In this document: positions 498 to 10,841 of the stretch, piece by piece
How the letters are laid out: every line of letters starts with the position of its first letter
How positions within the stretch are numbered: the first letter of the stretch is position 1
Assembly (NCBI GenBank): GCA_016783505.1
Contig: JADHWK010000059.1
Span: 1 to 13,582, forward strand
DNA from: Candidatus Zhuqueibacterota bacterium
GTDB taxonomy: Bacteria > BS750m-G25
Direction of reading: 5' to 3'
DNA length: 13,582 nucleotides
Notes under the pieces: generated by a model
Database searches by the model: none
Seen by the model: the letters and a program-made list of their open reading frames with translations, nothing else
Told to the model about the DNA's origin: nothing
Translations under genes and position numbers: made by a program

Positions 498-769
498 AAG
501 TTCTTTCCAATTGGAATTGATAGTAAAACTTATTTATTGAAAAATATTCATAAATTGCATTAAAAACCGTAATTTAATATTTCCTATTCCAATTAAAAAC
601 AAATTCTTACCTATTGTTTAATGGATTAATAGTAATAAAAAAGAGTTGTCTAAAAAGTCAAATAATTTTAAATTGTGGGCAGATATTGAATCTTATCATA
701 ATTTAGTGAGTAAAGATAGGTTTACTTGCTAATTAAAGGATAAAGTAAAACAAACGTCAGGAGGAAGTA
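498..769. other. AT-rich intergenic region at the left edge of the island
   Basis: Composition changes abruptly after the gyrB stop. The region contains a 12-base palindrome (TTCCAATTGGAA, 505-516) and a related inverted copy (ATTCCAATT, 587-595), but neither is followed by a U-run. Bases 646-732 read as a short open stretch ending LWADIESYHNLVSKDRFTC without a convincing start, possibly a relic gene end. A loose promoter-like pair (TTGTGG at 673, CATAAT at 697) precedes the next gene but is weak. A good ribosome binding site, AGGAGG at 759-764, serves the gene at 770. I see no clear direct-repeat integration junction. Confidence 0.5.
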
Positions 770-1357
770 ATGTATACATTTCAAGCTTTACAAATTTTGA
801 TATTTCTTATTCCAGGGTTTATTTCGGCAACAATTTTGGATGTTTTTATCGTTAGAAAAGAGAAAAAGGAGTTTGGAAAAATAATAGAAGCATTAATTTT
901 TTCTATGATAATATACATTATTTATTCCTTAATATCTGGTAAAAGTCCTGTTGTATTAAATCAAATTGAAAAATCTATTACTTATTCTTATGATAGTAAG
1001 TCTTTTTTGTTGTTAGGCTTACTTAGTATAGCTACGCCTACAGTATTAAGCTTTCTTATAACAAACGATTGGCATATGAAACTGGCACGAGGGCTACTAA
1101 TCAGCAGAAAAACTGCGAGAAGTTCCGTATGGTTTGATGTGTTTTGTGATATAAAAAAACACGTCATAGTAAATTTTGAAAATGGACGTCGAATATATGG
1201 ATGGCCGATGTATTATTCTAATAATCCAGAGAACCCTTATATTTTTTTATTTGAACCGTCTTGGGTTGAGGGAGATAAATTTGTCGATTTAGATTTAGAA
1301 GGTATCTTAATAACACCTGAGCAAAAAATTGAATCAATAGAATTCCTTAAAAGTTAA
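770..1357 (+). CDS. DUF6338-type membrane protein
   Basis: This is a 195-residue protein of unknown function. The N-terminal half is hydrophobic with about three predicted membrane segments (roughly residues 5-27, 40-57 and 78-97). The first contains the loop LIPGFISA and is followed by a charged stretch (VRKEKKEFGK). The C-terminal half is soluble and probably cytoplasmic, with the motif GRRIYGWPMYYS near residue 144 and later FLFEPSWV. This layout matches what I remember of the DUF6338 family: a PGF-type membrane start and a GWP-x-YYS strand region. It was not checked by search. The start is well supported by AGGAGG five bases upstream. A 38-codon proline-rich ORF with its own strong ribosome site follows after 26 bases, so the two probably form an operon. 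The biochemical role is unknown. Confidence 0.75.
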   Translation: MYTFQALQILIFLIPGFISATILDVFIVRKEKKEFGKIIEALIFSMIIYIIYSLISGKSPVVLNQIEKSITYSYDSKSFLLLGLLSIATPTVLSFLITNDWHMKLARGLLISRKTARSSVWFDVFCDIKKHVIVNFENGRRIYGWPMYYSNNPENPYIFLFEPSWVEGDKFVDLDLEGILITPEQKIESIEFLKS

Positions 1358-1383
1358 GTGAAGCGTTAAAAAAGGAGGTATCG

Positions 1384-1500
1384 ATGATTGACAAAGAGAA
1401 AAAAGAACTAAAAAGTGATAAAGGAGGTTATAATCCTCCCCCTAGAGACCACAAGAAGCCCGAGAGACCAACTCCTCCACCGCCACCAAAGGAAAAATAG
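1384..1500 (+). CDS. 38-residue proline-rich small protein
   Basis: This is a very short ORF with an exceptionally good ribosome site: AAGGAGGT at 1372-1379, four bases before the ATG. The peptide has a charged, lysine-rich start (MIDKEKKELKSDKGGYNPPP), then basic residues and a run of five prolines ending PPPPPKEK. It has no membrane segment or cysteine and is probably unstructured. It follows the DUF6338-type gene by 26 bases in the same direction, so a joint role is likely, for example as a partner that binds the membrane protein through its proline tail. That role is inference. The evidence for translation is the near-perfect Shine-Dalgarno sequence, the in-frame GGY/PPP composition unlike random AT-rich DNA, and the tight operon spacing. 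Confidence 0.72.
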   Translation: MIDKEKKELKSDKGGYNPPPRDHKKPERPTPPPPPKEK

Positions 1501-1557
1501 TTGTTTTAGGCTACATTTGATAACGCCTTTAGAGAAACTAAAGTTAACAGAAAAACA

Positions 1558-1604
1558 TTCACCCTTATCAAAAAGAGTTAAAGATTCCTGTGGATGTTGC
1601 CTGC
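1558..1604 (+). repeat. Dispersed intergenic repeat, copy A (left half only)
   Basis: This stretch aligns closely with copy B near 4169-4215. Both run through ACCCTT, CAAAAAGAG and GGATGTTGCCTGC in the same order and orientation. The right half, which in copies B and C forms a hairpin and ends near ATCCAC, is not recognisable here, so copy A looks truncated or diverged. It lies just upstream of the methyltransferase gene. Confidence 0.6.
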
Positions 1605-1650
1605 TCGACAAGACCCATTAAGTTTGACCAAAGACAAACGGAAGGAATCA

Positions 1651-3222
1651 ATGGAACTGAAGGGAAAAAAATATAATCCAAGCGGATTGCCATTTTTACA
1701 ATCACAAATATTAGAACACATTTATCTTAATATTAGCAAGAACCTAAAAACTGAAACAGAAAAGCTATCCAAAATTACCAATTACCCTGCTACTAGCAAG
1801 ATACTTTTAGGTGGGATAGATTTATTAGTTAATAAAAAATTTCTTAACGGTTCACTGGATACTGGATTTTCCGTACCTGATGAAAGATTTGATTTTTTTC
1901 AAAAAGTTATCAAAAAGAACGATTACAAAAACAAAACGTACTCAAGAAAATTATTTGATCACCTTGAGAAACAATCTTCACAATTAGAACTGTTTTTAGA
2001 AACTAAAAACATTAGTCAATTAAATCGCTATGGCGTGATCCATAAATGGTATAATTACCTTGAAGATTTTCCTTACTCATTGATAGAAGACAAAATCATT
2101 GAATACAACTTGAAAGATAATTCACTAGTTGTTGACCCGTTTTGCGGTAGTGGAACGACAATGATAACCGCAAATATGTTTCACCTGGATGCTGTCGGCT
2201 TTGATGCAAATCCGTTAATGACATATGTATCAAAAGTTAAAACTAATTGGGACATAAATATTGGCGAATTAGAGAAATGGATTAGAAACGTAGCGGAACA
2301 GTTTTTAAAAGGGGTACAGGAGTTATATATTAAACCCCTTAATAATGGCTTTTTAAGGGTAATGCCAAAAAAAGAATTAAATCAATGGTTAAGCCCCAGA
2401 TTGCAACAAGAAGTGTTATTGTTAAAAGATATAATTCTACAAATCCCAGACTTAAAAACAAGAGAACTGTTTTTGTTGGCTATGTCGAAATCTTGCTTTG
2501 ATGCCTCATATGTATCACTTTGCCCTGGAACAACCTTTTACCCTTTCAGGGAGAAAGAAGAATTTTGGGATTTATTCACGGATAAAATTATCAAAATGCA
2601 CGATGATTTAAAGGCAATACAAGCCCACAACCATTATGGCAAAACCAAATTAATTACTGACACTTGTTTGAATGCCCAAAATTATCTTGAAGAGGAATCA
2701 ATCAATTTTATTATTACTTCGCCACCCTATCCAAACGATCTAGAATATACCAGACAAACCCGCTTAGAACTTTATTTGCTTGATTTTGTCAGGGGAATGG
2801 ATGACATCCAAAAGATTAAAAGAAAAATGGCGAAGGGTAGCACTAAACTTATTTTTAAAGAAAGCAATTCGGCGCGTTTTGTTGAAAAATTCGACGAAGT
2901 AAGTTACATATCAAACGAAGTTTATGAACAAACAAAAAGTAAAAATTGGGGGTTTGATTATCCCAGAATGGTTAGAGAGTATTTCGGTGACATGTATCTG
3001 TGCATGAAGGAATTTTATCCTTTAATGAAACATAATTCTCGTTTTCTATTGGTTGTAGGCGATCAAACCATAAAAGGTGTTATGATTCCAGTTTGTAATA
3101 TTTTGATAAAGTTGGCCGAAGAAATTGGATATAATAATTGTCGTAAGAAACTTTTCAGGGTTAGAAGGAGCACAGGACACGACATACCATTACCAGAAGA
3201 AATAGTGATTCTTGAAAAATAA
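1651..3222 (+). CDS. Type II DNA methyltransferase (TSPPY, probable N4-cytosine or N6-adenine)
   Basis: This is a 523-residue S-adenosylmethionine-dependent DNA methyltransferase that would protect host DNA from the endonuclease encoded next to it. A motif X-like segment (HKWYNYLEDFPYSLI, about residues 131-145) leads into the cofactor-binding motif I, DPFCGSGTT (162-170). The catalytic motif IV, TSPPY, is at 356-360. The roughly 190 residues between are a likely target-recognition region, giving the alpha-class order X-I-TRD-IV. S-P-P-Y is the form most often linked to N4-cytosine methylation, but N6-adenine cannot be excluded. I chose ATG 1651 because GGAAGGAA lies four bases upstream. The in-frame ATG at 1594 lies inside repeat copy A and has no clear ribosome site. 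The gene is AT-rich and ends about ten bases before the endonuclease start. Confidence 0.88.
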   Translation: MELKGKKYNPSGLPFLQSQILEHIYLNISKNLKTETEKLSKITNYPATSKILLGGIDLLVNKKFLNGSLDTGFSVPDERFDFFQKVIKKNDYKNKTYSRKLFDHLEKQSSQLELFLETKNISQLNRYGVIHKWYNYLEDFPYSLIEDKIIEYNLKDNSLVVDPFCGSGTTMITANMFHLDAVGFDANPLMTYVSKVKTNWDINIGELEKWIRNVAEQFLKGVQELYIKPLNNGFLRVMPKKELNQWLSPRLQQEVLLLKDIILQIPDLKTRELFLLAMSKSCFDASYVSLCPGTTFYPFREKEEFWDLFTDKIIKMHDDLKAIQAHNHYGKTKLITDTCLNAQNYLEEESINFIITSPPYPNDLEYTRQTRLELYLLDFVRGMDDIQKIKRKMAKGSTKLIFKESNSARFVEKFDEVSYISNEVYEQTKSKNWGFDYPRMVREYFGDMYLCMKEFYPLMKHNSRFLLVVGDQTIKGVMIPVCNILIKLAEEIGYNNCRKKLFRVRRSTGHDIPLPEEIVILEK

Positions 3223-3231
3223 TTGGTGATC

Positions 3232-4086
3232 ATGGGAAACGTTCAATTAGAAGCATTTGGTGAATTATTTCAAAGCCAGAATTCAATAAATAGACTTCGC
3301 AACAATGATTTTGTATGTCCTTTTGATAACCGTATTGATATATGTAACAAACCAAATCGTGGTTCATTGAAATATGGAAATTGTAGTGCCCAGGTTGGTA
3401 AATCAAAACGAATAATATGTCCAAGAAGGTTTTACGAAAGCAATTATCAAATATTGAAAGAAACAAAGAATTTTCTCTGGCCAGACGATATAAATATTGA
3501 TTGCTATGATGAACTGGGAATCAATATCAGAACTTCTAATGGCGATTCATTTCATTACGGGAACATAGATTGGGTTTTAGTGAATCGCCAGAATAGTTCA
3601 GATTTTTGCGGGATTGAGATTCAAACAGATTCCACAACCGGAACAGGTGCATTTAGAAAAGGTATTAAAGATCTATTAAATGGAAATTTAACAGACAATT
3701 ATAAGTTTGGATTAAATACTCTTGCATCTTTCAAGGGTTTTTTACCACAATTCATTTTTAAGGGACAGCTATTTGATGATTGGAAAAGGCCTTATTGTGC
3801 AGTTATTCAAGATGAGTTATGGGAAAAATTCATTAAAAAGTTTAGAATTCGTTACAAAGAGATTACTACATATTCGACAGAGACATTCTTGTTTTTTGTT
3901 TACTCCTTGGAATATAACCCTACCGAAAACAAATACCACATTGGTAGTCATAAAATTTATGCAACGAGGTGGATTGATTTATTGTTCTCGTTTTCTGTTG
4001 AAAAGAAATTTTTGCTCGACTTAGATGACATTAAAAGACGTATTCAGAAAAAAATGAAAAGAAGACAACCAATTATCACGTTTTAG
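3232..4086 (+). CDS. NotI-like type II restriction endonuclease
   Basis: This protein of 284 residues probably cleaves DNA at the site modified by the upstream methyltransferase. From ATG 3232 its N-terminal region has cysteines at 29, 38, 51 and 63 in the arrangement CPF...C...NC...CPRRF. That matches my memory of NotI, whose N-terminal cysteines bind iron. A PD-(D/E)xK-like centre follows: D113 in YGNIDWVLV, then E129 and Q131 in GIEIQTDSTTGTG, with glutamine where lysine is usual. The start is uncertain. TTG 3223 and GTG 3226 directly follow the methyltransferase stop, while ATG 3232 has GGTGATC immediately before it, an SD-like match at unusually short spacing. Either way translation is probably coupled to the methyltransferase. 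The NotI-family assignment rests on motif recognition. The recognition sequence cannot be read from the protein. Confidence 0.78.
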   Translation: MGNVQLEAFGELFQSQNSINRLRNNDFVCPFDNRIDICNKPNRGSLKYGNCSAQVGKSKRIICPRRFYESNYQILKETKNFLWPDDINIDCYDELGINIRTSNGDSFHYGNIDWVLVNRQNSSDFCGIEIQTDSTTGTGAFRKGIKDLLNGNLTDNYKFGLNTLASFKGFLPQFIFKGQLFDDWKRPYCAVIQDELWEKFIKKFRIRYKEITTYSTETFLFFVYSLEYNPTENKYHIGSHKIYATRWIDLLFSFSVEKKFLLDLDDIKRRIQKKMKRRQPIITF

Positions 4087-4168
4087 ATTTATCGAAACAA
4101 ATAGTTTAAATTTTCTAAAACAGCCAAGCAGATAGCATCTTTTAAAAAGCTAAATTCAAGAAAAAAAA

Positions 4169-4251
4169 TTACCCTTTCCAAAAAGAGGCAAAAATCCTTG
4201 TTGGATGTTGCCTGCCTGCCCAGGTCTATGGGCGGGTAATCCACTGAAAAT
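4169..4251 (+). repeat. Dispersed palindromic intergenic repeat, copy B (most complete)
   Basis: The left part matches copy A from ACCCTT to GTTGCCTGC. The centre forms a hairpin: CCTGCCCA (4215-4222) pairs with TGGGCGGG (4229-4236) with one wobble pair and a six-base loop. An outer pairing of TGGAT with ATCCA (near 4202-4206 and 4239-4243) encloses it. The right end, ATCCACTGAAAATT, matches the right end of copy C. It lies about 80 bases after the endonuclease stop, so copies A and B bracket the restriction-modification genes in direct orientation. Confidence 0.65.
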
Positions 4252-4276
4252 TCAATAACAACAAATCTGCCCCGAC

Positions 4277-4320
4277 AAATAAACCAATAATTCCGTAAAA
4301 CAACAATTGATTGGTTATTT
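4277..4320. promoter_or_regulatory. Imperfect inverted repeat upstream of the HEPN gene (possible operator)
   Basis: Bases 4277-4292 and the reverse complement of 4305-4320 are both 16 long and agree except for one extra base in each arm. The core is AACCAAT...ATTGGTT. The loop is 12 bases. There is no U-run, so it is unlikely to be a terminator. It ends 67 bases before the start of the HEPN gene, whose protein has a helix-turn-helix-like C-terminus, so an autoregulatory operator is possible but unproven. Confidence 0.3.
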
Positions 4321-4387
4321 GGTTAAAAATTACGAAGTTAGTAGTTAAGAAACCCCTTGTTAATGTATTGAAGAATGGGTTGGGTTC

Positions 4388-5509
4388 ATGAGAAGGGAAG
4401 CTAAGATACTTCTAAAGAGAAGTGTTGATTCATTAGTCTTAGCAGTTGATCATTTCAACAGATCTTGGGATTGTGGGCGTAGAGAAGCGGTTCTCATTTT
4501 CTTGGACAGAGCATTTGAATTGTTGCTAAAGGCTGTACTTGTGCACCGCGGCGGTCGAATTAGAGCGCCAAAGGCCATGGAGATATTAGGCTTTGACAAT
4601 TGTCTCCGTAAATGCTTGAGCGATTTGACAGTGAAGTGCCTGAACGAGGATGATGCACTTACAATTCAAACCATAAATAGTCTTCGTAATGCGGTCCAGC
4701 ATTATATCCTTGATATATCAGAGCAGTTGCTTTCCCTCTACACGCAGGCAGGATTCACATTGTTTAGGAAATTACTAAAGGCGGTCTTCAATAAAGGTTT
4801 ATTGGACTATTTTCCCGAAAGAATTTTTCCGGTATCCGCCTCTCTACCAGAGGACTTAGCGAGCCTATTCAATACTGATTTCTCTGAAATTAAAGAATTA
4901 GTAACTTCGGGTAGGGGAAGACGAATACAAGCTCGGGCAAAAATGCGTGCTTTTCTAATCATTGAGTCATCTTTTTCCGGTATACGATCGCAGCCCAGTG
5001 AGAATAAGTTGGGAAGGTTAATGAGGCGTATAAACGAAGGGAAGGCTTGGACAGATCTTTTCCCAGGAATTGCTACTTTAAAGATCGATTCTAGTGGAGA
5101 AGGTATTAATGTTTCTGTTAGTATTACTCAAAAAGAGGGAGAACAAATACATTTGGTTCCAGAAGGAATCCCAGGGTCAACCGTTGTAGCTATTAAACAT
5201 GTAAATGAACTTGGCTTTTATTCGTTGGGGTTAAATCAGCTTGCTGAAAAATTGGGGATTTCTGCACCCAAGACAATTGCGTTAATTAAGTACCTTAACC
5301 TTCAAGAATCATCGGATTGCTGCAAGGAAATTCGTATTGGTAGTTCACGGTTTAAAAGATACAGCGCAAAGGCGTTGGATATGCTACAGAAAAGCCTATT
5401 AGACGTCAACATGCAGGAAGTTTGGCTGGAGTATGGACCACGTCGTTCGCCAAAGGATGGGTTAAGAAAGGAAAACAATTCAAATCTTTTCTTTCACGGC
5501 GGCCCCTAA
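4388..5509 (+). CDS. DUF3644/HEPN protein with C-terminal winged-helix-like domain
   Basis: This 373-residue protein is a candidate stand-alone HEPN ribonuclease. The N-terminal part resembles DUF3644: a helix of the SVDSLVLAVDHFNR type, FLDRAFELLLKAVLV around residues 38-52, and the motif LRNAVQHY with R100, N101 and H105. That is the Rx4H pair HEPN nucleases use for metal-independent RNA cleavage. A helical linker follows. Around residues 280-330 a helix-turn-helix-like segment (LGLNQLAEKLGISAPKTIA) is followed by a basic wing-like strand (IRIGSSRFKRYS). No nucleotidyltransferase (MNT) or other known antitoxin is adjacent. Related HEPN proteins act in abortive infection, toxin-antitoxin and restriction-linked defence, which fits the neighbouring restriction-modification genes. 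The ATG at 4388 lacks a strong Shine-Dalgarno sequence. Family membership is likely; RNase activity is inferred from the motif. Confidence 0.72.
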   Translation: MRREAKILLKRSVDSLVLAVDHFNRSWDCGRREAVLIFLDRAFELLLKAVLVHRGGRIRAPKAMEILGFDNCLRKCLSDLTVKCLNEDDALTIQTINSLRNAVQHYILDISEQLLSLYTQAGFTLFRKLLKAVFNKGLLDYFPERIFPVSASLPEDLASLFNTDFSEIKELVTSGRGRRIQARAKMRAFLIIESSFSGIRSQPSENKLGRLMRRINEGKAWTDLFPGIATLKIDSSGEGINVSVSITQKEGEQIHLVPEGIPGSTVVAIKHVNELGFYSLGLNQLAEKLGISAPKTIALIKYLNLQESSDCCKEIRIGSSRFKRYSAKALDMLQKSLLDVNMQEVWLEYGPRRSPKDGLRKENNSNLFFHGGP

Positions 5510-5660
5510 ATCGTTTTAGGATGAAAAAAGTATAAGCAATAAAAATTCAACGATTGTTTTTGGCGTTTAGATAAAAGTATTTTTTAATAATTAATCAAGA
5601 AAAGCTGAATATGTTTGCTATTTATCGGAAAGGGACCCTTGTAATATTTGGGAGGTTTGT

Positions 5661-5717
5661 ATGGTAAAGTTATACGATAAAGACAATGAAATGGATTTTA
5701 CAAAGGGGGTGAGATAA
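5661..5717 (+). CDS. Micro-ORF 1 (18 codons), leader or relic
   Basis: ATG 5661 is preceded by GGGAGG (5650-5655) at ideal spacing. It reads MVKLYDKDNEMDFTKGVR and stops at TAA 5715-5717, where TAATG overlaps the start of the next micro-ORF by one base. No family is recognised. It may be a leader peptide that keeps ribosomes moving toward the downstream enzyme, or the remains of a longer gene. Confidence 0.4.
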   Translation: MVKLYDKDNEMDFTKGVR

Positions 5718-5797
5718 TGCCTGTTAATGTCTGGATGATATGGATGACTTTTCCGATTACAAGAAAAAACAGAAGGAAAAACAAAAGATTAAAATGA
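5717..5797 (+). CDS. Micro-ORF 2 (26 codons), translationally coupled to the fusion enzyme
   Basis: It starts at ATG 5717 within TAATG and has GGGGGTGA four bases upstream, close to the canonical ribosome site. Its stop overlaps the start of the fusion enzyme as ATGA at 5794-5797. The peptide begins MPVNVWMIWMTFP and ends in a strongly basic tail. No function is recognised. The two overlaps give an unbroken chain of coupled starts from 5661 to the enzyme, which is the main reason for listing it. Confidence 0.4.
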   Translation: MPVNVWMIWMTFPITRKNRRKNKRLK

Positions 5798-7842
5798 AAT
5801 GCCTGATCATCGCTGCCGGGCGAGGAAGCAGACTATCAACTAGGGGAGATTCAAAGCCCCTCATTCCTCTCCTGGGATTATCCCTTATCGAACGGGTGAT
5901 ATTAACCGCAAAAAAGAGCGGTCTTACTGATTTCTTTGTGGTGACAGGGTACAAAGGTAAAAAGGTAAGGCAACACCTTAACAGATTTAGCCAGAGCAGA
6001 AACATAAATATAACCCATATCATAAAAGAGGATTGGGAGAAGGGAAACGGCATATCTGTCCTTAAGGCAAAAGAATTATTAAATGAGAATTTTATTCTGT
6101 TGATGGGGGATCACGTCTTTGACGAATCAATACTGGTAAGACTAAAGAACGAAAGAATACTCGATGGCAAAGTTGTGCTGGCCGTAGATTATAACATTAA
6201 AACCAACAACCTCGTTGATGTCACCAAAGTTCTTGTCGAAGACAACAGGATTTTAGATATAGGAAAGAATATCAAGAAATACAACGCTTATGATACAGGA
6301 AATTTTCTTTGTTCTCCGGCAATATTCAGTGCCATCGAAGAAAGTTTGTCTAATGGTAACGATTCTCTTTCAAGTGGAATGGGGGTAATGGCTGAAAAAG
6401 GGAAGGTTAAAGCCATAGACATTAAAAATTCTTACTGGGTTGAGGTGAATACAAAGAACGATTGCAGAAAAGCCGCCAAGCTATTGTATGGTGAGTCAAT
6501 AAAACCGGCCGGTCCAATTACTCGATATATCAATGCGACATTTGCCACCAGGATTTTTACACCCCTTCTTCTTAAAATATATAAAAAATTTACCCCCAAT
6601 CAGGTCTCCATATTGAGTTTTGTTGTAGCTATTATAAGCAGCTTAAGTTTTGTTCTTAGTCATGCGATTACAGGAGGTTTATTGATACAACTATCAAGTA
6701 TTTTGGACTATAGTGATGGGCAAATATCACGAATCAAGCATATGGAGTCCCGTTTTGGACATTTCATTGACACAACCCTTGACCGCTATGACGATGGTTT
6801 CATACTTTTAGGGATGTTTTATTACTCACTATCCCAAATAGGGAGTAAAGAGATACTGGGGATTTATTGGAGCCCTTTGATCATTAGTAGCATTTCCATA
6901 TTAGCGATCATAGGGAACCTGATGGTCAGTTACACTTCCGCAACATCGGTGGTTAATTTTGGCTATGTATATAAAAGGAGATGGATTGCTGCTGGAAGAG
7001 GGAGAGACATTAGACTATTTCTACTTTTCGTCGGGGGAATAATGAGCTATTTTCATCCGATTTTTGTATTACTTGCCTTGTTTATTATGGCCTTACAAAC
7101 CAATATAATTGTAATATGGCGAATTATTTTATCATGGAATTATTATAACAAAGAGGGTGCTTTCAGGATGATGAGAAGAATTAAAGCAATTATTTTTGAT
7201 TTTGATGGAACAGTAGCAAATACAATGCCTTTCTTAACAGAGTTGGCTGTAAATCTTATTACTGAGAACTATAACATCTCAAAAGAAGATGCTGAAAGAA
7301 AGTATTTAGAGACGACCGGATTAGATTTTGCGAGCCAGTTGGGGACAATTTTTCCAGACAATCCCAGCAACCAGAAAGTGGCCGCTATCTTTGAGGAAAG
7401 TAAGTTAAGGGGTGTTTTCGACCATCCCCTCTTCCCCGATGTCATACCCACCCTGGACCATTTTAGAAAAAAGAAAATCAAGATGTTTGTTTGCAGCAGT
7501 ACCAAACAAAGGATAATTACAAAATATGGCCAGTTAAACAAAATTGATGATTTGATGGATAACCTTTTTGGTTATGAACCCGGTTTCAAAAAGGGAGACC
7601 AGATTGATTTCATCCTTCAGCACTATAAATTGCGACCTGACGAAGTGGTTTTTGTGGCGGATTCTTTAAGAGATCATGGTTTTGCTGAAGAAAGAAAATT
7701 AAATTTTATCGGTATTTCTAAAATTTTTGAGAAAAAAGAGTTTCAGAATAAGGGGGCATTAAGCGTTAGTAGCCTGAATGATCTTAGGAAGCTTTTTGAT
7801 ACATCTTACAATTATCTCAAATATGTTGAAAAGGTAAGATGA
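5794..7842 (+). CDS. Three-domain fusion: nucleotidyltransferase, CDP-alcohol phosphotransferase, HAD phosphatase (IPCT/DIPPS-like)
   Basis: The protein has 682 residues from ATG 5794. Domain 1 (about 1-235) is a sugar/alcohol-phosphate nucleotidyltransferase, with AAGRGSRL near 7-14, KPLIPLLG at 21-28 and the metal-binding MGDH at 104-107. Domain 2 (about 245-450) is a membrane CDP-alcohol phosphotransferase. Its signature DxxDGxx(S)R-x8-G-x3-D-x3-D is complete (D305, D308, G309, R313, G322, D326, D330), with hydrophobic segments around it. Domain 3 (about 459-682) is a HAD phosphatase: DFDGT at 469-473, CSST, FKKGDQ and VADSLRD. Domains 1+2 resemble the bifunctional enzyme that makes CDP-inositol and joins it to inositol-1-phosphate. 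That product needs a phosphatase, which domain 3 could supply. The substrate is inferred and another polyol is possible. ATG 5740 is an alternative start, but 5794 begins at the conserved fold and overlaps the upstream stop as ATGA. Confidence 0.85.
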   Translation: MKCLIIAAGRGSRLSTRGDSKPLIPLLGLSLIERVILTAKKSGLTDFFVVTGYKGKKVRQHLNRFSQSRNINITHIIKEDWEKGNGISVLKAKELLNENFILLMGDHVFDESILVRLKNERILDGKVVLAVDYNIKTNNLVDVTKVLVEDNRILDIGKNIKKYNAYDTGNFLCSPAIFSAIEESLSNGNDSLSSGMGVMAEKGKVKAIDIKNSYWVEVNTKNDCRKAAKLLYGESIKPAGPITRYINATFATRIFTPLLLKIYKKFTPNQVSILSFVVAIISSLSFVLSHAITGGLLIQLSSILDYSDGQISRIKHMESRFGHFIDTTLDRYDDGFILLGMFYYSLSQIGSKEILGIYWSPLIISSISILAIIGNLMVSYTSATSVVNFGYVYKRRWIAAGRGRDIRLFLLFVGGIMSYFHPIFVLLALFIMALQTNIIVIWRIILSWNYYNKEGAFRMMRRIKAIIFDFDGTVANTMPFLTELAVNLITENYNISKEDAERKYLETTGLDFASQLGTIFPDNPSNQKVAAIFEESKLRGVFDHPLFPDVIPTLDHFRKKKIKMFVCSSTKQRIITKYGQLNKIDDLMDNLFGYEPGFKKGDQIDFILQHYKLRPDEVVFVADSLRDHGFAEERKLNFIGISKIFEKKEFQNKGALSVSSLNDLRKLFDTSYNYLKYVEKVR

Positions 7843-7854
7843 GGCCGCAGAACT

Positions 7855-7913
7855 CCTTGTGGACATTTCCCGCCTACCAGCAACCCGATTGGGTCGGGTC
7901 ATCCACCGAAAAT
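7855..7913 (+). repeat. Dispersed palindromic intergenic repeat, copy C
   Basis: It starts with CTCCTTGTGGA and ends with ATCCACCGAAAATTAA, related to the ends of copy B. The centre has a perfect six-base stem, ACCCGA (7883-7888) with TCGGGT (7894-7899), and an outer stem of GTGGA (7859-7863) with TCCAC (7902-7906). It lies 12 bases after the stop of the fusion gene, in the same orientation as copies A and B. It could act as a transcript-end hairpin, but no U-run follows. Confidence 0.6.
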
Positions 7914-7974
7914 TAAGTAATGTGGTTAGTCGAAACGTTTTTCATCTTTCAAAGACATGGATAAGGGGTCTAAT

Positions 7975-9453
7975 ATGAAAACACTTCTCGTTTATCCAGA
8001 TTATCCGGACACTTTCTGGAGTTTTAAGTACGCATTAAAATTCATATTTAAAAAGGCCACTCACCCGCCCCTGGGGTTATTGACTGTGGCTGCGATGCTT
8101 CCTGAGGAGTGGGAGAAAAGACTTGTAGACATGAATGTATCAGCATTAACCGATAGAGACCTTGAATGGGCTGATTATGTGTTTATTAGTGCTATGTCTA
8201 TCCAGAAACAATCGGTAAAAGAAATCATCACCAGGTGCAAGAAAATAGGCGTTAAGACTGTGGTTGGTGGTCCTCTTTTTACTACTGGACATGAAGATTT
8301 TGATGATGTAGATCATTTTGTGCTTAATGAGGCAGAAATTACGCTGCCGCCATTTTTAGAAGATTTGAGAAACGGTTGTGCTAAGCACATTTATACCTCT
8401 AAAGAATTACCGGACATAGAAAAGACGCCCATTCCGTCCTGGGGACTTATCAACATGAAAAGATATTTATCTATGAATATCCAGTATTCCCGGGGCTGTC
8501 CTTTTAATTGTGAATTCTGCGACATCAGGGTGCTTTATGGCGATAAGGTGCGAACGAAGGGAAAAGGCCAGATATTAGCCGAATTAGAAAACCTGTACTC
8601 CCAGGGCTGGCGGGGTGGAGTATTTTTTGTTGATGATAACTTTATAGGAAACAAGAGAAAGTTAAAAAAGGAGATTTTGCCCGCAACAATTGAATGGATG
8701 GAGAGAAAAAAACATCCCTTTGCTTTTAATACGGAGACATCCATAAATCTTTCCGACGATGATGAACTCATGCAATTGATGGTTAAGGCAGGATTTGATT
8801 CAGTATTTGTTGGTATTGAGACACCGAACGAGGAAAGTCTTGTAGAATGTAATAAGTTTCTGAACAGAAACCGTGATTTAGTAGCCTGCGTAAAGAAGAT
8901 TCAGAGATTTGGTTTACAGGTACAAGGGGGATTCATTGTGGGTTTTGATAATGATCCCCTTTCAATTTTCGAAAGGCTTATTGCATTTATTAAGGAAAGT
9001 GGAATTGTCACCGCCATGGTTGGGTTATTAAATGCTCCTCGTGGCACAGGACTTTACCATCGTCTTGAAAAAGAGAATCGGTTGTTAAAAGATGTTACCG
9101 GTGACAATACAGACTGCTCAATTAATTTCATTCCAAAAATGAACTATGACACGCTTATTGATGGTTATAAAAAGATTCTCAATACAATTTATTCTTCAAA
9201 ACATTACTACAAAAGAGTTAAGGGGTTTTTAAGAGAATATAAGCCGTTGCAAAAAAAGGGGTTTCGCTTTCATTTCAATCACATTGGAGCACTCTTCAAA
9301 TCGGTATTATTTTTAGGGATAATAGGGAGAGAACGGTTTCAATACTGGAAACTTTTTTTCTGGTCTTTGTTCAGGCGCCCAAGACTTTTTCCATTGGCAA
9401 TCACTTTTGCGATCTACGGATTCCATTTTCGAAAGGTTTTTGAGAATTACTGA
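7975..9453 (+). CDS. B12-binding radical SAM protein (DUF4070 type)
   Basis: This 492-residue protein probably uses a [4Fe-4S] cluster, S-adenosylmethionine and a cobalamin for a radical methylation or similar step. The N-terminal part (about 1-140) looks like a B12-binding Rossmann domain, with HPPLGLLTVAAMLP, ISAMSIQ and VVGGPLFT. The classic DxHxxG cobalamin ligand is not obvious, as is common in this group. The radical SAM motif is C175-x3-C179-x2-C182 (SRGCPFNCEFCD). The barrel continues with FFVDDNFIGN, FVGIETPNEES and GGFIVGFDND. The C-terminus (DTLIDGYKKILNTIYSSKHYYKR) resembles DUF4070, the group that includes the hopanoid methylase HpnP. I chose ATG 7975 because AAGGGG lies six bases upstream; ATG 7957 would add six residues. 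It follows the fusion enzyme and may act on the same product, but its substrate is unknown. Confidence 0.88.
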   Translation: MKTLLVYPDYPDTFWSFKYALKFIFKKATHPPLGLLTVAAMLPEEWEKRLVDMNVSALTDRDLEWADYVFISAMSIQKQSVKEIITRCKKIGVKTVVGGPLFTTGHEDFDDVDHFVLNEAEITLPPFLEDLRNGCAKHIYTSKELPDIEKTPIPSWGLINMKRYLSMNIQYSRGCPFNCEFCDIRVLYGDKVRTKGKGQILAELENLYSQGWRGGVFFVDDNFIGNKRKLKKEILPATIEWMERKKHPFAFNTETSINLSDDDELMQLMVKAGFDSVFVGIETPNEESLVECNKFLNRNRDLVACVKKIQRFGLQVQGGFIVGFDNDPLSIFERLIAFIKESGIVTAMVGLLNAPRGTGLYHRLEKENRLLKDVTGDNTDCSINFIPKMNYDTLIDGYKKILNTIYSSKHYYKRVKGFLREYKPLQKKGFRFHFNHIGALFKSVLFLGIIGRERFQYWKLFFWSLFRRPRLFPLAITFAIYGFHFRKVFENY

Positions 9454-9473
9454 AATTTAAAAGGGAGATCAGA

Positions 9474-9779
9474 ATGAATATCTATGTGGGCAATTTGTCA
9501 ACTGAGGTCACCGAAGAGGATTTGCAACAGGCCTTTGAGGCCTTCGGGCAGGTCACATCCGCCACCGTTATAAAGGACATGTTCAGCGGCGTATCAAGAG
9601 GGTTCGGATTCGTGGAGATGCCCGCCAAAGCGGAAGCCCAGTCCGCCATCACCGGCCTGAGCGGCAAAGATTTGAAGGGCCAAATACTTAACGTTAATGA
9701 GGCTCGCCCCCGATCCGAGGGCCGCCGGGGTAGAGGAGGACGAGGCGGGGGAAGAAAGGGTGGTGGGCGGCGCTTCTAA
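9474..9779 (+). CDS. RRM RNA-binding protein with glycine/arginine-rich tail
   Basis: This 101-residue single RNA-recognition-motif protein is of the type found widely in bacteria, where it binds RNA in the cytoplasm and may help folding or cold adaptation. RNP2 is IYVGNL (residues 3-8) and RNP1 is RGFGFVEM (42-49), both with their stacking aromatic residues. From about residue 82 the tail is nearly all Arg and Gly (GRRGRGGRGGGRKGGGRRF). The ribosome site AGGGAG lies six bases before the ATG, and the gene starts 20 bases after the radical SAM stop. Its base composition is GC-rich like the gyr genes and unlike its upstream neighbours, so it may belong to the host backbone. No terminator is evident after it. 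Confidence 0.93.
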   Translation: MNIYVGNLSTEVTEEDLQQAFEAFGQVTSATVIKDMFSGVSRGFGFVEMPAKAEAQSAITGLSGKDLKGQILNVNEARPRSEGRRGRGGRGGGRKGGGRRF

Positions 9780-9902
9780 TAAGCGAGATGAAACCCCATA
9801 AAGATTGTTGGTGTTGAGTGATTTGGACGAGAGAAGTATTGGTGATGAGTGTTGTTGCAAAACCACCCGTAGCCCCCTTTTATTAGTTAATGAAAACATT
9901 TT

Positions 9903-10412
9903 GTGAAGGGCCTGGTGAAAAAGATCAACGTACGACTCTTGTTGCCATCGGACTTACCCGCAATTCAAAAAGTCGCTTTGGAAACTTGGTCAGATACGTA
10001 CGGCTCTTTCATCCCCGAAGAAGACATTTTAGAGGATCATAATAAACACTGCAACATAGAAGCACTCGGTAAACTTTATAAAAAGCGAGATGGGATGGTG
10101 GGCGAGGTAGATAATGAAGTTGTGGCTTATTCAACTTGTGGATTGAATGAAGAAATGAATCGATATCATATATATTCTCTATACATTTTGCCGGATTACC
10201 AAGGTCATGGGTTGGGTAAGAAACTACTAGGCCTGGCCTATGAAAAAGCCAAGGAATTGGGTTTTGATAGAGTTTGGTTAGGAGTTATGGAGAAGAACAC
10301 CAAAACCCTGGAATGGTATCGGTCTCAAGGGTTTCAATTTGTGGAAGAAGAACCCTTCACCATGGGAAAAACCATTGTTAATTGTCTGAATGGCTACAAA
10401 TTGATATCGTAG
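9903..10412 (+). CDS. GNAT-family N-acetyltransferase
   Basis: This protein of up to 169 residues transfers acetyl from acetyl-CoA to an amine. GNAT motif A is clear at LYILPDYQGHGLGKKLL, with the acetyl-CoA pyrophosphate loop Q100-GHGLG105. Motif B follows as VWLGVMEKNTKTLEWYRSQGF. The WLGV-E-N...FY/WY pattern recalls the polyamine acetyltransferase PaiA of Bacillus, but the substrate cannot be settled by eye. The start is uncertain: GTG 9903 is used here, GTG 9915 is also in frame, and no good Shine-Dalgarno sequence precedes either. The gene stands alone, 123 bases after the RRM gene, and is followed by the long non-coding region upstream of gyrA. Confidence 0.85.
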   Translation: MKGLVKKINVRLLLPSDLPAIQKVALETWSDTYGSFIPEEDILEDHNKHCNIEALGKLYKKRDGMVGEVDNEVVAYSTCGLNEEMNRYHIYSLYILPDYQGHGLGKKLLGLAYEKAKELGFDRVWLGVMEKNTKTLEWYRSQGFQFVEEEPFTMGKTIVNCLNGYKLIS

Positions 10413-10519
10413 AGCATTTCAGCAAATTCCGTTTCCAACCATAAATTGTTCAAAGCCATACTGATATTTGTCTTAAGGGACTGTGATGCAACCCTGAAAT
10501 TGCTGATTCGGAGTTTCAA

Positions 10520-10598
10520 ATAAACCCGTCCATACATATCCGTCTGGATAAACGGGTAACTCCAACTGGCGGAGTTATCCCGAAACTTCGGGGTTTAT
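10520..10598 (+). repeat. Compact multi-hairpin (four-way-junction-like) element
   Basis: An outer stem, ATAAA (10520-10524) with TTTAT (10594-10598), encloses three adjacent hairpins. The first is CCCGT/ACGGG (10525-10529/10552-10556), with an inner TATCC/GGATA hairpin. The second is TAACTCC/GGAGTTA (10557-10563/10571-10577). The third is CCCGA/TCGGG (10579-10583/10588-10592). Almost every base of the junction is used. No U-run follows. Parts (GGCGGAGTTATCC, CGAAACTT) weakly echo the right ends of repeat copies B and C. It could be a structured RNA, a DNA cruciform or a diverged palindromic repeat. Confidence 0.5.
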
Positions 10599-10612
10599 TA
10601 GATTATATGTCC

Positions 10613-10841
10613 TATCTTGTCTAGGTGTTTACACTATGGTTAACAGATTCTTCTCAAAATGTCCCATTAATAACTCACGCTACTGACCATAAAATTACCT
10701 CCTTTCTAAAACGGTTTTGTTCGTTATATATACCCAAGAAAGAAAGCTTTATCGAACAGTGATTCACAACCCCATTAAAAGAAAATAGTAGGTCCCTAAA
10801 AAAGAACAATAACATAAAAGTGTAAACACCCCCTCAAGATA
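10613..10841 (-). mobile_element. Internally deleted insertion element (MITE-like) with terminal inverted repeats
   Basis: GGTGTTTACACT at 10624-10635 is repeated as a perfect inverse at 10819-10830. Beyond each, after four unmatched bases, TATCTTG (10613-10619) and CAAGATA (10835-10841) also pair. Read on the minus strand, the interior has an AT-rich promoter-like stretch (TATATATAAC), then AAAGGAGG, five bases, and an ATG near 10692. That ATG opens a frame of only seven codons (MVSSVSY) before a stop. This fits an insertion sequence that kept its ends, leader, ribosome site and start codon but lost the transposase. No convincing target duplication is seen, and the IS family is not assigned. 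Confidence 0.6.

What the first reader, a model, noticed from the sequence alone, without database searches (positions are those of the whole stretch)
5794..7842. IPCT-DIPPS-like enzyme fused to a HAD phosphatase: all late steps in one chain
The bifunctional IPCT/DIPPS of thermophiles makes phosphorylated di-myo-inositol phosphate, which then needs a phosphatase. As far as I recall, that phosphatase is poorly defined. Here a HAD domain with complete motifs is joined to the C-terminus, suggesting the missing step. The host need not be a thermophile, so the product might instead be another phosphodiester or a lipid headgroup.
Basis: partly seen in the sequence, partly recalled or inferred. Interest (0 to 1): 0.7.

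Follow-up and report, generated by a model that had tools for sequence, protein, structure and literature searches.

The report
Three-step CDP-inositol phosphodiester synthase with phosphatase
One long protein joins an enzyme that activates inositol phosphate, a membrane enzyme that transfers it, and a phosphatase; the same fusion occurs in at least seven other bacterial phyla, and the phosphatase is a plausible candidate for the poorly defined last step of inositol-phosphodiester synthesis.

Summary
ORF 5740-7842 (+; probable start 5794) encodes a cytidylyltransferase (NT), a CDP-alcohol phosphotransferase (CAP) and a HAD phosphatase in one intact chain with complete core motifs. The architecture is not a one-off: 18 further three-domain loci were found in about 8 phyla, and 15 of 17 of those genomes carry inositol-1-phosphate synthase (MIPS), against 41% of 386 diverse genomes.

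Closest relatives without HAD form MIPS / NT-CAP / DUF4202 operons. DUF4202 follows the gene in 38 of 57 two-domain loci and in 0 of 17 three-domain loci, so fused HAD and DUF4202 look like alternatives. The CAP keeps the arginines that bind a phosphorylated acceptor. Stand-alone HAD relatives mostly sit beside NT and/or CAP genes, and one lies in an inositol-catabolic operon.

Best reading: NT makes CDP-inositol, CAP joins it to inositol phosphate, and HAD removes the remaining phosphate. The NT step is well supported, the HAD substrate is inferred, and the final product (soluble diester or lipid) is open. The window genome (60% complete) shows no MIPS.

Unexpectedly, NT domains have been exchanged between two- and three-domain genes. 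New variant of a known kind.

The parts
5717..5797 (+). Possible 26-aa leader ORF (MPVNVWMIWMTFPITRKNRRKNKRLK) with a GGGGGTGAG Shine-Dalgarno; its stop overlaps the ATG at 5794 (ATGA)
   Evidence: direct reading of the sequence
5740..7842 (+). Three-domain ORF, 700 aa; probable real start at 5794 (682 aa)
5794..6489 (+). Domain 1: CTP:inositol-1-phosphate cytidylyltransferase-like (NT), residues 19-250
   Evidence: Pfam NTP_transf_3; PDB 2XME, 4JD0, 4MND; 71-77% identical to the NT domain of two-domain relatives, several of them MIPS-linked
6502..7143 (+). Domain 2: CDP-alcohol phosphotransferase (CAP), residues 255-468
   Evidence: Pfam CDP-OH_P_transf; NF041135 CAP part 95 bits; 4MND Z 27.4 over both domains
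6706..6783 (+). CAP catalytic motif D323-x2-D326-G327-x3-R331 ... G340-x3-D344-x3-D348; window reads DYSDGQISR where relatives have DG(C/S)DGE(I/V)AR
   Evidence: invariant columns of A2; unusual residues listed
7003..7122 (+). Acceptor-phosphate arginines R422xxR425 and R461 (TM6)
   Evidence: invariant in 40 sequences; L069, a class-B CAP, aligns at these sites with PIP synthases 6h53/6wm5; roles of the PIPS arginines from PMC4634129
7171..7809 (+). Domain 3: HAD phosphatase with C1 cap, residues 478-690; motif residues D487/D489, S586, K618, D641/D645
   Evidence: Pfam HAD_2; A3 alignment; model pLDDT 91, nearest folds 3MC1/3D6J/2AH5, Z 23-24
7957..9453 (+). B12-binding radical SAM protein with DUF4070, 114 bp downstream; membership of the system uncertain
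   Evidence: homologues 59-63% identical lie near L072 and L114 genes

Best explanation
The protein is a modular inositol-phosphodiester synthase. Domain 1 condenses CTP with L-myo-inositol-1-phosphate to CDP-inositol. Domain 2, in the membrane, transfers inositol phosphate from CDP-inositol to a second phosphorylated alcohol, most likely inositol-1-phosphate, giving a phosphorylated diester. Domain 3 removes the remaining phosphomonoester (for example DIPP to DIP), which pulls the chain of reactions forward. Shown by sequence: three intact domains with full core motifs, acceptor arginines, and the recurrence of the architecture. Inferred: substrates, order of steps, and that the HAD works on the CAP product. 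Rough likelihoods: CDP-inositol-forming NT 0.85; HAD acts on an inositol-phosphate group 0.65; the soluble diester route as a whole 0.5.
For: NT: 61-62% identical to MIPS-operon enzymes and 77% to ANME-1/Actinomycetota ones, with MIPS upstream in 31 of 52 two-domain loci that have room. CAP: best model is the DIPPS part of NF041135, then archaetidylinositol-phosphate and PI-phosphate synthases, which all use phosphorylated inositol as acceptor; R422, R425 and R461 are invariant (PMC4634129). MIPS occurs in 15 of 17 other three-domain genomes against 157 of 386 diverse genomes (Fisher p 1.6e-4, not corrected for kinship). HAD: in 386 diverse genomes only 7 others carry a close relative, and 6 of these sit directly beside NT and/or CAP genes; 6 of 7 genomes have MIPS. 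One relative lies in an IolM-IolN-IolO inositol-catabolic operon. DUF4202 follows 38 of 57 two-domain genes but 0 of 17 three-domain genes.
Against: No MIPS in the window genome, which is 60% complete. The three-domain CAPs form their own strongly separated clade (100/100, branch 1.93), so the acceptor may have changed. CAPs of the stand-alone HAD clusters mostly lack the acceptor arginines, so there the HAD cannot simply be acting on a CAP product with a phosphorylated acceptor. The window copy deviates at 11 of 77 near-invariant CAP positions, including G324Y, E328Q, A330S and A345T, and has E235/N237 where relatives have Asp in the NT. No sign of hyperthermophily, the usual setting of DIP: the only reverse-gyrase match is below the family cut-off. 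Two three-domain loci also have IMPase and DUF4202 genes nearby.
Confidence: 0.5

Rival explanations
1. Lipid headgroup route: NT makes CDP-inositol and the CAP transfers inositol phosphate to a lipid acceptor (diacylglycerol, dialkylglycerol or ceramide), giving an inositol lipid; the HAD acts on a side substrate or on a lipid intermediate.
For: PMC9246714 predicts such a Kennedy-like route for the MIPS + NT + CAP + HAD gene cluster of B. vulgatus/Prevotella, whose members make inositol sphingolipids; PMC9246714 also cites CDP-inositol-dependent ether-lipid synthesis (Jorge et al. 2015, not read here). Stand-alone HAD clusters carry LPG_synthase_TM genes, as in that paper. Many hosts here come from cold seeps or groundwater, judging by record titles. 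The three-domain CAP is a distinct clade.
Against: The three-domain CAP keeps R422, R425 and R461, which bind the acceptor phosphate in PIP synthases; stand-alone cluster CAPs mostly lack them. A lipid route from DAG needs no phosphatase.
Confidence: 0.25
2. The HAD works upstream: it dephosphorylates inositol-1-phosphate to free inositol, which is the acceptor for the CAP, so DIP forms directly without a phosphorylated intermediate.
For: An older scheme for DIP has inositol monophosphatase and then CDP-inositol + inositol, and even invokes a multifunctional DIP synthase that dephosphorylates inositol phosphate itself (PMC1224877). A close HAD relative lies in an inositol-catabolic operon, where free inositol would be the product. 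CAPs beside stand-alone HADs mostly lack acceptor-phosphate arginines.
Against: The window CAP keeps the acceptor-phosphate arginines. IMPase-family genes that could do this job follow the gene in L035, L037 and L047.
Confidence: 0.15
3. Other soluble phosphodiester: the acceptor is glycerol-3-phosphate or another phosphorylated alcohol, giving glycerophosphoinositol after HAD action.
For: A glycerophosphodiester phosphodiesterase gene follows the three-domain gene in L036 and two genes on in L047. In L133 a HAD relative is clustered with a glycerol-3-phosphate-cytidylyltransferase-like gene and a CAP. The acceptor arginines would fit any phosphorylated alcohol.
Against: Only two loci with GDPD, both in related Planctomycetota; no direct evidence on acceptor choice.
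Confidence: 0.1

Closest known systems
Bifunctional IPCT/DIPPS of Archaeoglobus and Thermococcales (PDB 4MND; NF041135)
   Same: Domain order NT-CAP, fold over 406 residues, CAP catalytic motif, acceptor arginines
   Different: Extra C-terminal HAD domain; only 249.9 bits against a curated cut-off of 580; CAP in a separate clade; bacterial hosts not shown to be thermophiles
MIPS / NT-CAP / DUF4202 operons of bacteria and ANME archaea (L048-L114)
   Same: NT domain up to 77% identical; same NT-CAP order; inositol context
   Different: No HAD; instead a separate HD-domain DUF4202 gene follows; CAP only about 30-41% identical to the window's
Alternative inositol cluster of B. vulgatus/Prevotella (PMC9246714)
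   Same: MIPS + NT + CAP + HAD parts; a CAP-HAD fusion reported in P. veroralis
   Different: Separate genes with a remote NT; the look-alike clusters examined here have CAPs mostly lacking acceptor arginines; function there predicted only, as lipid synthesis
Actinobacterial PI-phosphate synthase (PIPS)
   Same: CAP domain with phosphorylated-inositol acceptor arginines; product needs a phosphatase
   Different: Donor is CDP-diacylglycerol, not CDP-inositol; no NT or HAD domain
PntC-type fusions (phosphonate cytidylyltransferase; 6PD2)
   Same: NT fold (Z 29) and fusion habit
   Different: 18% identity; no CAP or HAD; no phosphonate genes seen in the window

Membership tests
IPCT/DIPPS bifunctional enzyme (NF041135 equivalog) | Score above the curated family cut-off (580 bits) | tested here: not met
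   249.9 bits: a relative, not a member of this equivalog
IPCT/DIPPS bifunctional enzyme (NF041135 equivalog) | NT followed by CAP with the A. fulgidus fold | tested here: met
   4MND Z 27.4, rmsd 2.4, 406 residues, 29% identity
IPCT/DIPPS bifunctional enzyme (NF041135 equivalog) | CAP motif D..DG...R...G...D...D and acceptor-phosphate arginines | tested here: met
   invariant columns D323 D326 G327 R331 G340 D344 D348, R422 R425 R461; A330 is Ser in the window
IPCT/DIPPS bifunctional enzyme (NF041135 equivalog) | Makes CDP-inositol and DIPP | not testable with these tools
   needs enzyme assay
DIP pathway | Inositol-1-phosphate synthase in the genome | tested here: inconclusive
   none found in the 60%-complete own genome; 15 of 17 other three-domain genomes have it
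DIP pathway | Hyperthermophilic host | tested here: inconclusive
   no reverse gyrase over the cut-off; no 16S rRNA found; genome incomplete
HAD phosphatase, C1-cap subfamily | Motifs I-IV (DxD, S/T, K, DD) and C1 cap fold | tested here: met
   A3 alignment; 3MC1/3D6J Z about 24
HAD phosphatase, C1-cap subfamily | Membership of a characterised HAD equivalog | tested here: not met
   best NCBIfam model 39.3 bits against a cut-off of 225
B. vulgatus alternative inositol cluster (PMC9246714) | HAD of the same family as BVU_RS13115 | not tested

The most novel reading that the evidence does not exclude
CDP-inositol phosphodiester synthesis is a modular system spread through non-hyperthermophilic bacteria and archaea: one interchangeable inositol cytidylyltransferase domain is recombined with two classes of transferase, each with its own unrelated phosphatase (fused HAD, or the HD-domain DUF4202 gene), which supply the undefined last step of DIP-type solute synthesis.
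Probability: 0.35. Interest if true: 0.75.

Novelty: new variant of a known kind. Interest (0 to 1): 0.58.

Why it matters
If right, a single protein carries out activation, transfer and dephosphorylation, so the poorly defined phosphatase of the DIP-type pathway gets a concrete candidate that can be assayed. The companion DUF4202 pattern offers a second, independent candidate. It would also widen inositol-phosphodiester or CDP-inositol chemistry from thermophiles to cold-seep, anammox and groundwater lineages, and show that the pathway evolves by swapping domains.

Tried and rejected
Fusion as an assembly error: rejected, because 18 further loci in about 8 phyla carry it. Phosphonate NT (PntC) reading: the NT fold match is highest for 6PD2 (Z 29.0) but within about 1-2 of 4JD0 and 4MND at lower identity, and the genomic context of relatives is inositol. 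HAD as a known phosphoglycolate phosphatase or beta-PGM: no curated cut-off reached. Three-domain NTs as one clade: rejected, AU p 5e-13. Radical SAM neighbour as part of the system: two nearby homologues (L072, L114), too few to claim. Host temperature from rRNA: no 16S found. Nogly 2014 and Brito 2011 are not in the paper library; a search for DUF4202 found no paper, and a five-term search for an NT/CAP/HAD inositol fusion found only an unrelated paper. No tRNA or Rfam RNA in the window.

Full report
Observation. The window holds one uninterrupted frame, 5740-7842 on the + strand. Its three parts are found independently by Pfam: an NTP transferase domain, a CDP-alcohol phosphotransferase and a HAD hydrolase. 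NCBIfam places residues 19-459 nearest to the bifunctional IPCT/DIPPS enzyme, but well below that family's curated cut-off (249.9 against 580 bits). The PDB sequence search and the model comparison both point to the A. fulgidus IPCT-DIPPS structure 4MND over both domains.

Distribution. A scan of 84,980 species genomes with an alignment of relatives returned 80 loci. Eighteen of them, beside the window, carry all three domains in one chain (17 by ORF calling, plus L061 read in frame; L043 and L046 are two contigs of one genome): Deltaproteobacteria, Thermodesulfobacteriota, Planctomycetota including Scalindua, Cloacimonadota, Spirochaetes, Chloroflexi, Actinomycetota, one labelled Thermoanaerobacterales, and one unplaced bacterium. 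Three more are cut at contig ends after the CAP. MIPS was found in 15 of 17 of these genomes, against 157 of 386 diverse genomes; Fisher p is 1.6e-4 without correction for kinship. In three loci MIPS lies directly upstream, and in three an IMPase-family gene follows with overlapping or touching ends.

Relatives without HAD. The nearest two-domain genes form operons: MIPS upstream in 31 of 52 loci with room, and a DUF4202 HD-domain gene directly downstream in 38 of 57. None of 17 three-domain genes has DUF4202 in that place. Because the DIPPS reaction with a phosphorylated acceptor leaves a phosphomonoester, the simplest reading is that the fused HAD and the DUF4202 gene are alternative phosphatases. 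This is inference; two three-domain loci (L037, L047) also have DUF4202 a few genes on, and DUF4202 is present in 6 of the 18 genomes searched, the window's included.

Mosaic origin. The window NT is 71-77% identical to NTs of two-domain genes from ANME-1 archaea and others, but its CAP is far from theirs; the CAP is 65-74% identical to three-domain genes whose NTs are as low as 50%. In the CAP tree all three-domain CAPs fall in one strongly supported set of 24 rows, with six rows lacking a fused HAD: three cut at contig ends and three archaeal. In the NT tree the three-domain rows are scattered, and holding them together is rejected (log-likelihood loss 289, p-AU 5e-13). So NT domains have been exchanged between the two gene types, which argues that NT does the same job in both. 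The tree's bootstrap had not fully settled, and long branches are present.

Acceptor. The CAP catalytic residues and R422, R425 and R461 are invariant across 40 two- and three-domain sequences. A class-B CAP (L069) aligns these arginines with those of PIP synthases, where two arginines bind the phosphate of the inositol-phosphate acceptor (PMC4634129). This supports a phosphorylated acceptor. CAPs next to stand-alone HAD genes mostly lack these arginines, so those clusters may work differently.

The HAD. Its motifs are complete and its fold is an ordinary C1-cap phosphatase; it fits no characterised equivalog. In 386 diverse genomes only seven others hold a close relative, all stand-alone: four next to an NT gene (G042, G109, G378, G148), one next to a CAP (G151), one between an NT fused to LPG_synthase_TM and a CAP, with MIPS nearby (G286), and one with neither (G274). 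MIPS is present in 6 of these 7 genomes. Among 50 genomes of two-domain or archaeal CAP-B loci only two hold it: a Hodarchaeota genome, where one copy clusters with a glycerol-3-phosphate-cytidylyltransferase-like gene and a CAP, and a Thermotogae genome, where it lies in an operon with IolM, IolN and IolO of inositol catabolism. Together this ties the HAD family to inositol phosphates, though not to one substrate.

Known work. An NT + CAP + HAD cluster beside MIPS, and a CAP-HAD fusion, were described in Bacteroidetes and proposed, without test, to make inositol lipids (PMC9246714). An older review proposed a multifunctional DIP synthase that also dephosphorylates inositol phosphate (PMC1224877). 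I found no account of the three-domain chain, but the paper library is partial.

Caveats. The host genome is about 60% complete and shows no MIPS; it has one IMPase-family gene. The window copy departs from near-invariant CAP residues at 11 of 77 positions (second highest among 15 three-domain sequences compared) and from the usual NT Asp pair (E235, N237), so this particular copy may have shifted specificity or lowered activity. The gene lies in a low-GC stretch between gyrB and gyrA, probably acquired.

Verdict. Observation confirmed, interpretation partly supported. New variant of a known kind.

Noticed in passing
L048-L114, downstream of the two-domain NT-CAP genes; e.g. L022:245-799, L024:8488-9060: A DUF4202 (PF13875, HD-domain) gene directly follows 38 of 57 two-domain IPCT/DIPPS-like genes; a possible unrecognised phosphatase or hydrolase of the pathway, and a search for the family name found no paper in the library.
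   Followed up: partly
window 600-10800: A 28-48% GC stretch lies between gyrB (about 49%) and gyrA (55-59%); probably an acquired island.
   Followed up: partly
window 1594-4086: A DNA methyltransferase (N6_N4_Mtase) followed at once by a NotI-family restriction endonuclease: a likely restriction-modification pair.
   Followed up: no
window 770-1357 and 4388-5509: DUF6338 membrane-like protein and DUF3644 protein flank the restriction-modification pair; function unknown.
   Followed up: no
window 7957-9453; L072:11632-13146; L114:7291-8880: A B12-binding radical SAM DUF4070 protein follows the three-domain gene; homologues 59-63% identical lie within about 2.5-4 kb of related genes in two other genomes.
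   Followed up: partly
L086:7001-10964: A Hodarchaeota locus has a normal NT-CAP gene, an IMPase gene and, convergent, a three-domain-type CAP behind a strongly diverged NT without a HAD.
   Followed up: partly
window 5717-5797: Possible 26-aa leader peptide with a strong Shine-Dalgarno sequence, overlapping the start of the three-domain gene by ATGA.
   Followed up: partly
L134:5317-11327: A Thermotogae inositol-catabolic operon (IolM, IolN, IolO) includes a HAD of this family and a PPi-type phosphofructokinase.
   Followed up: partly
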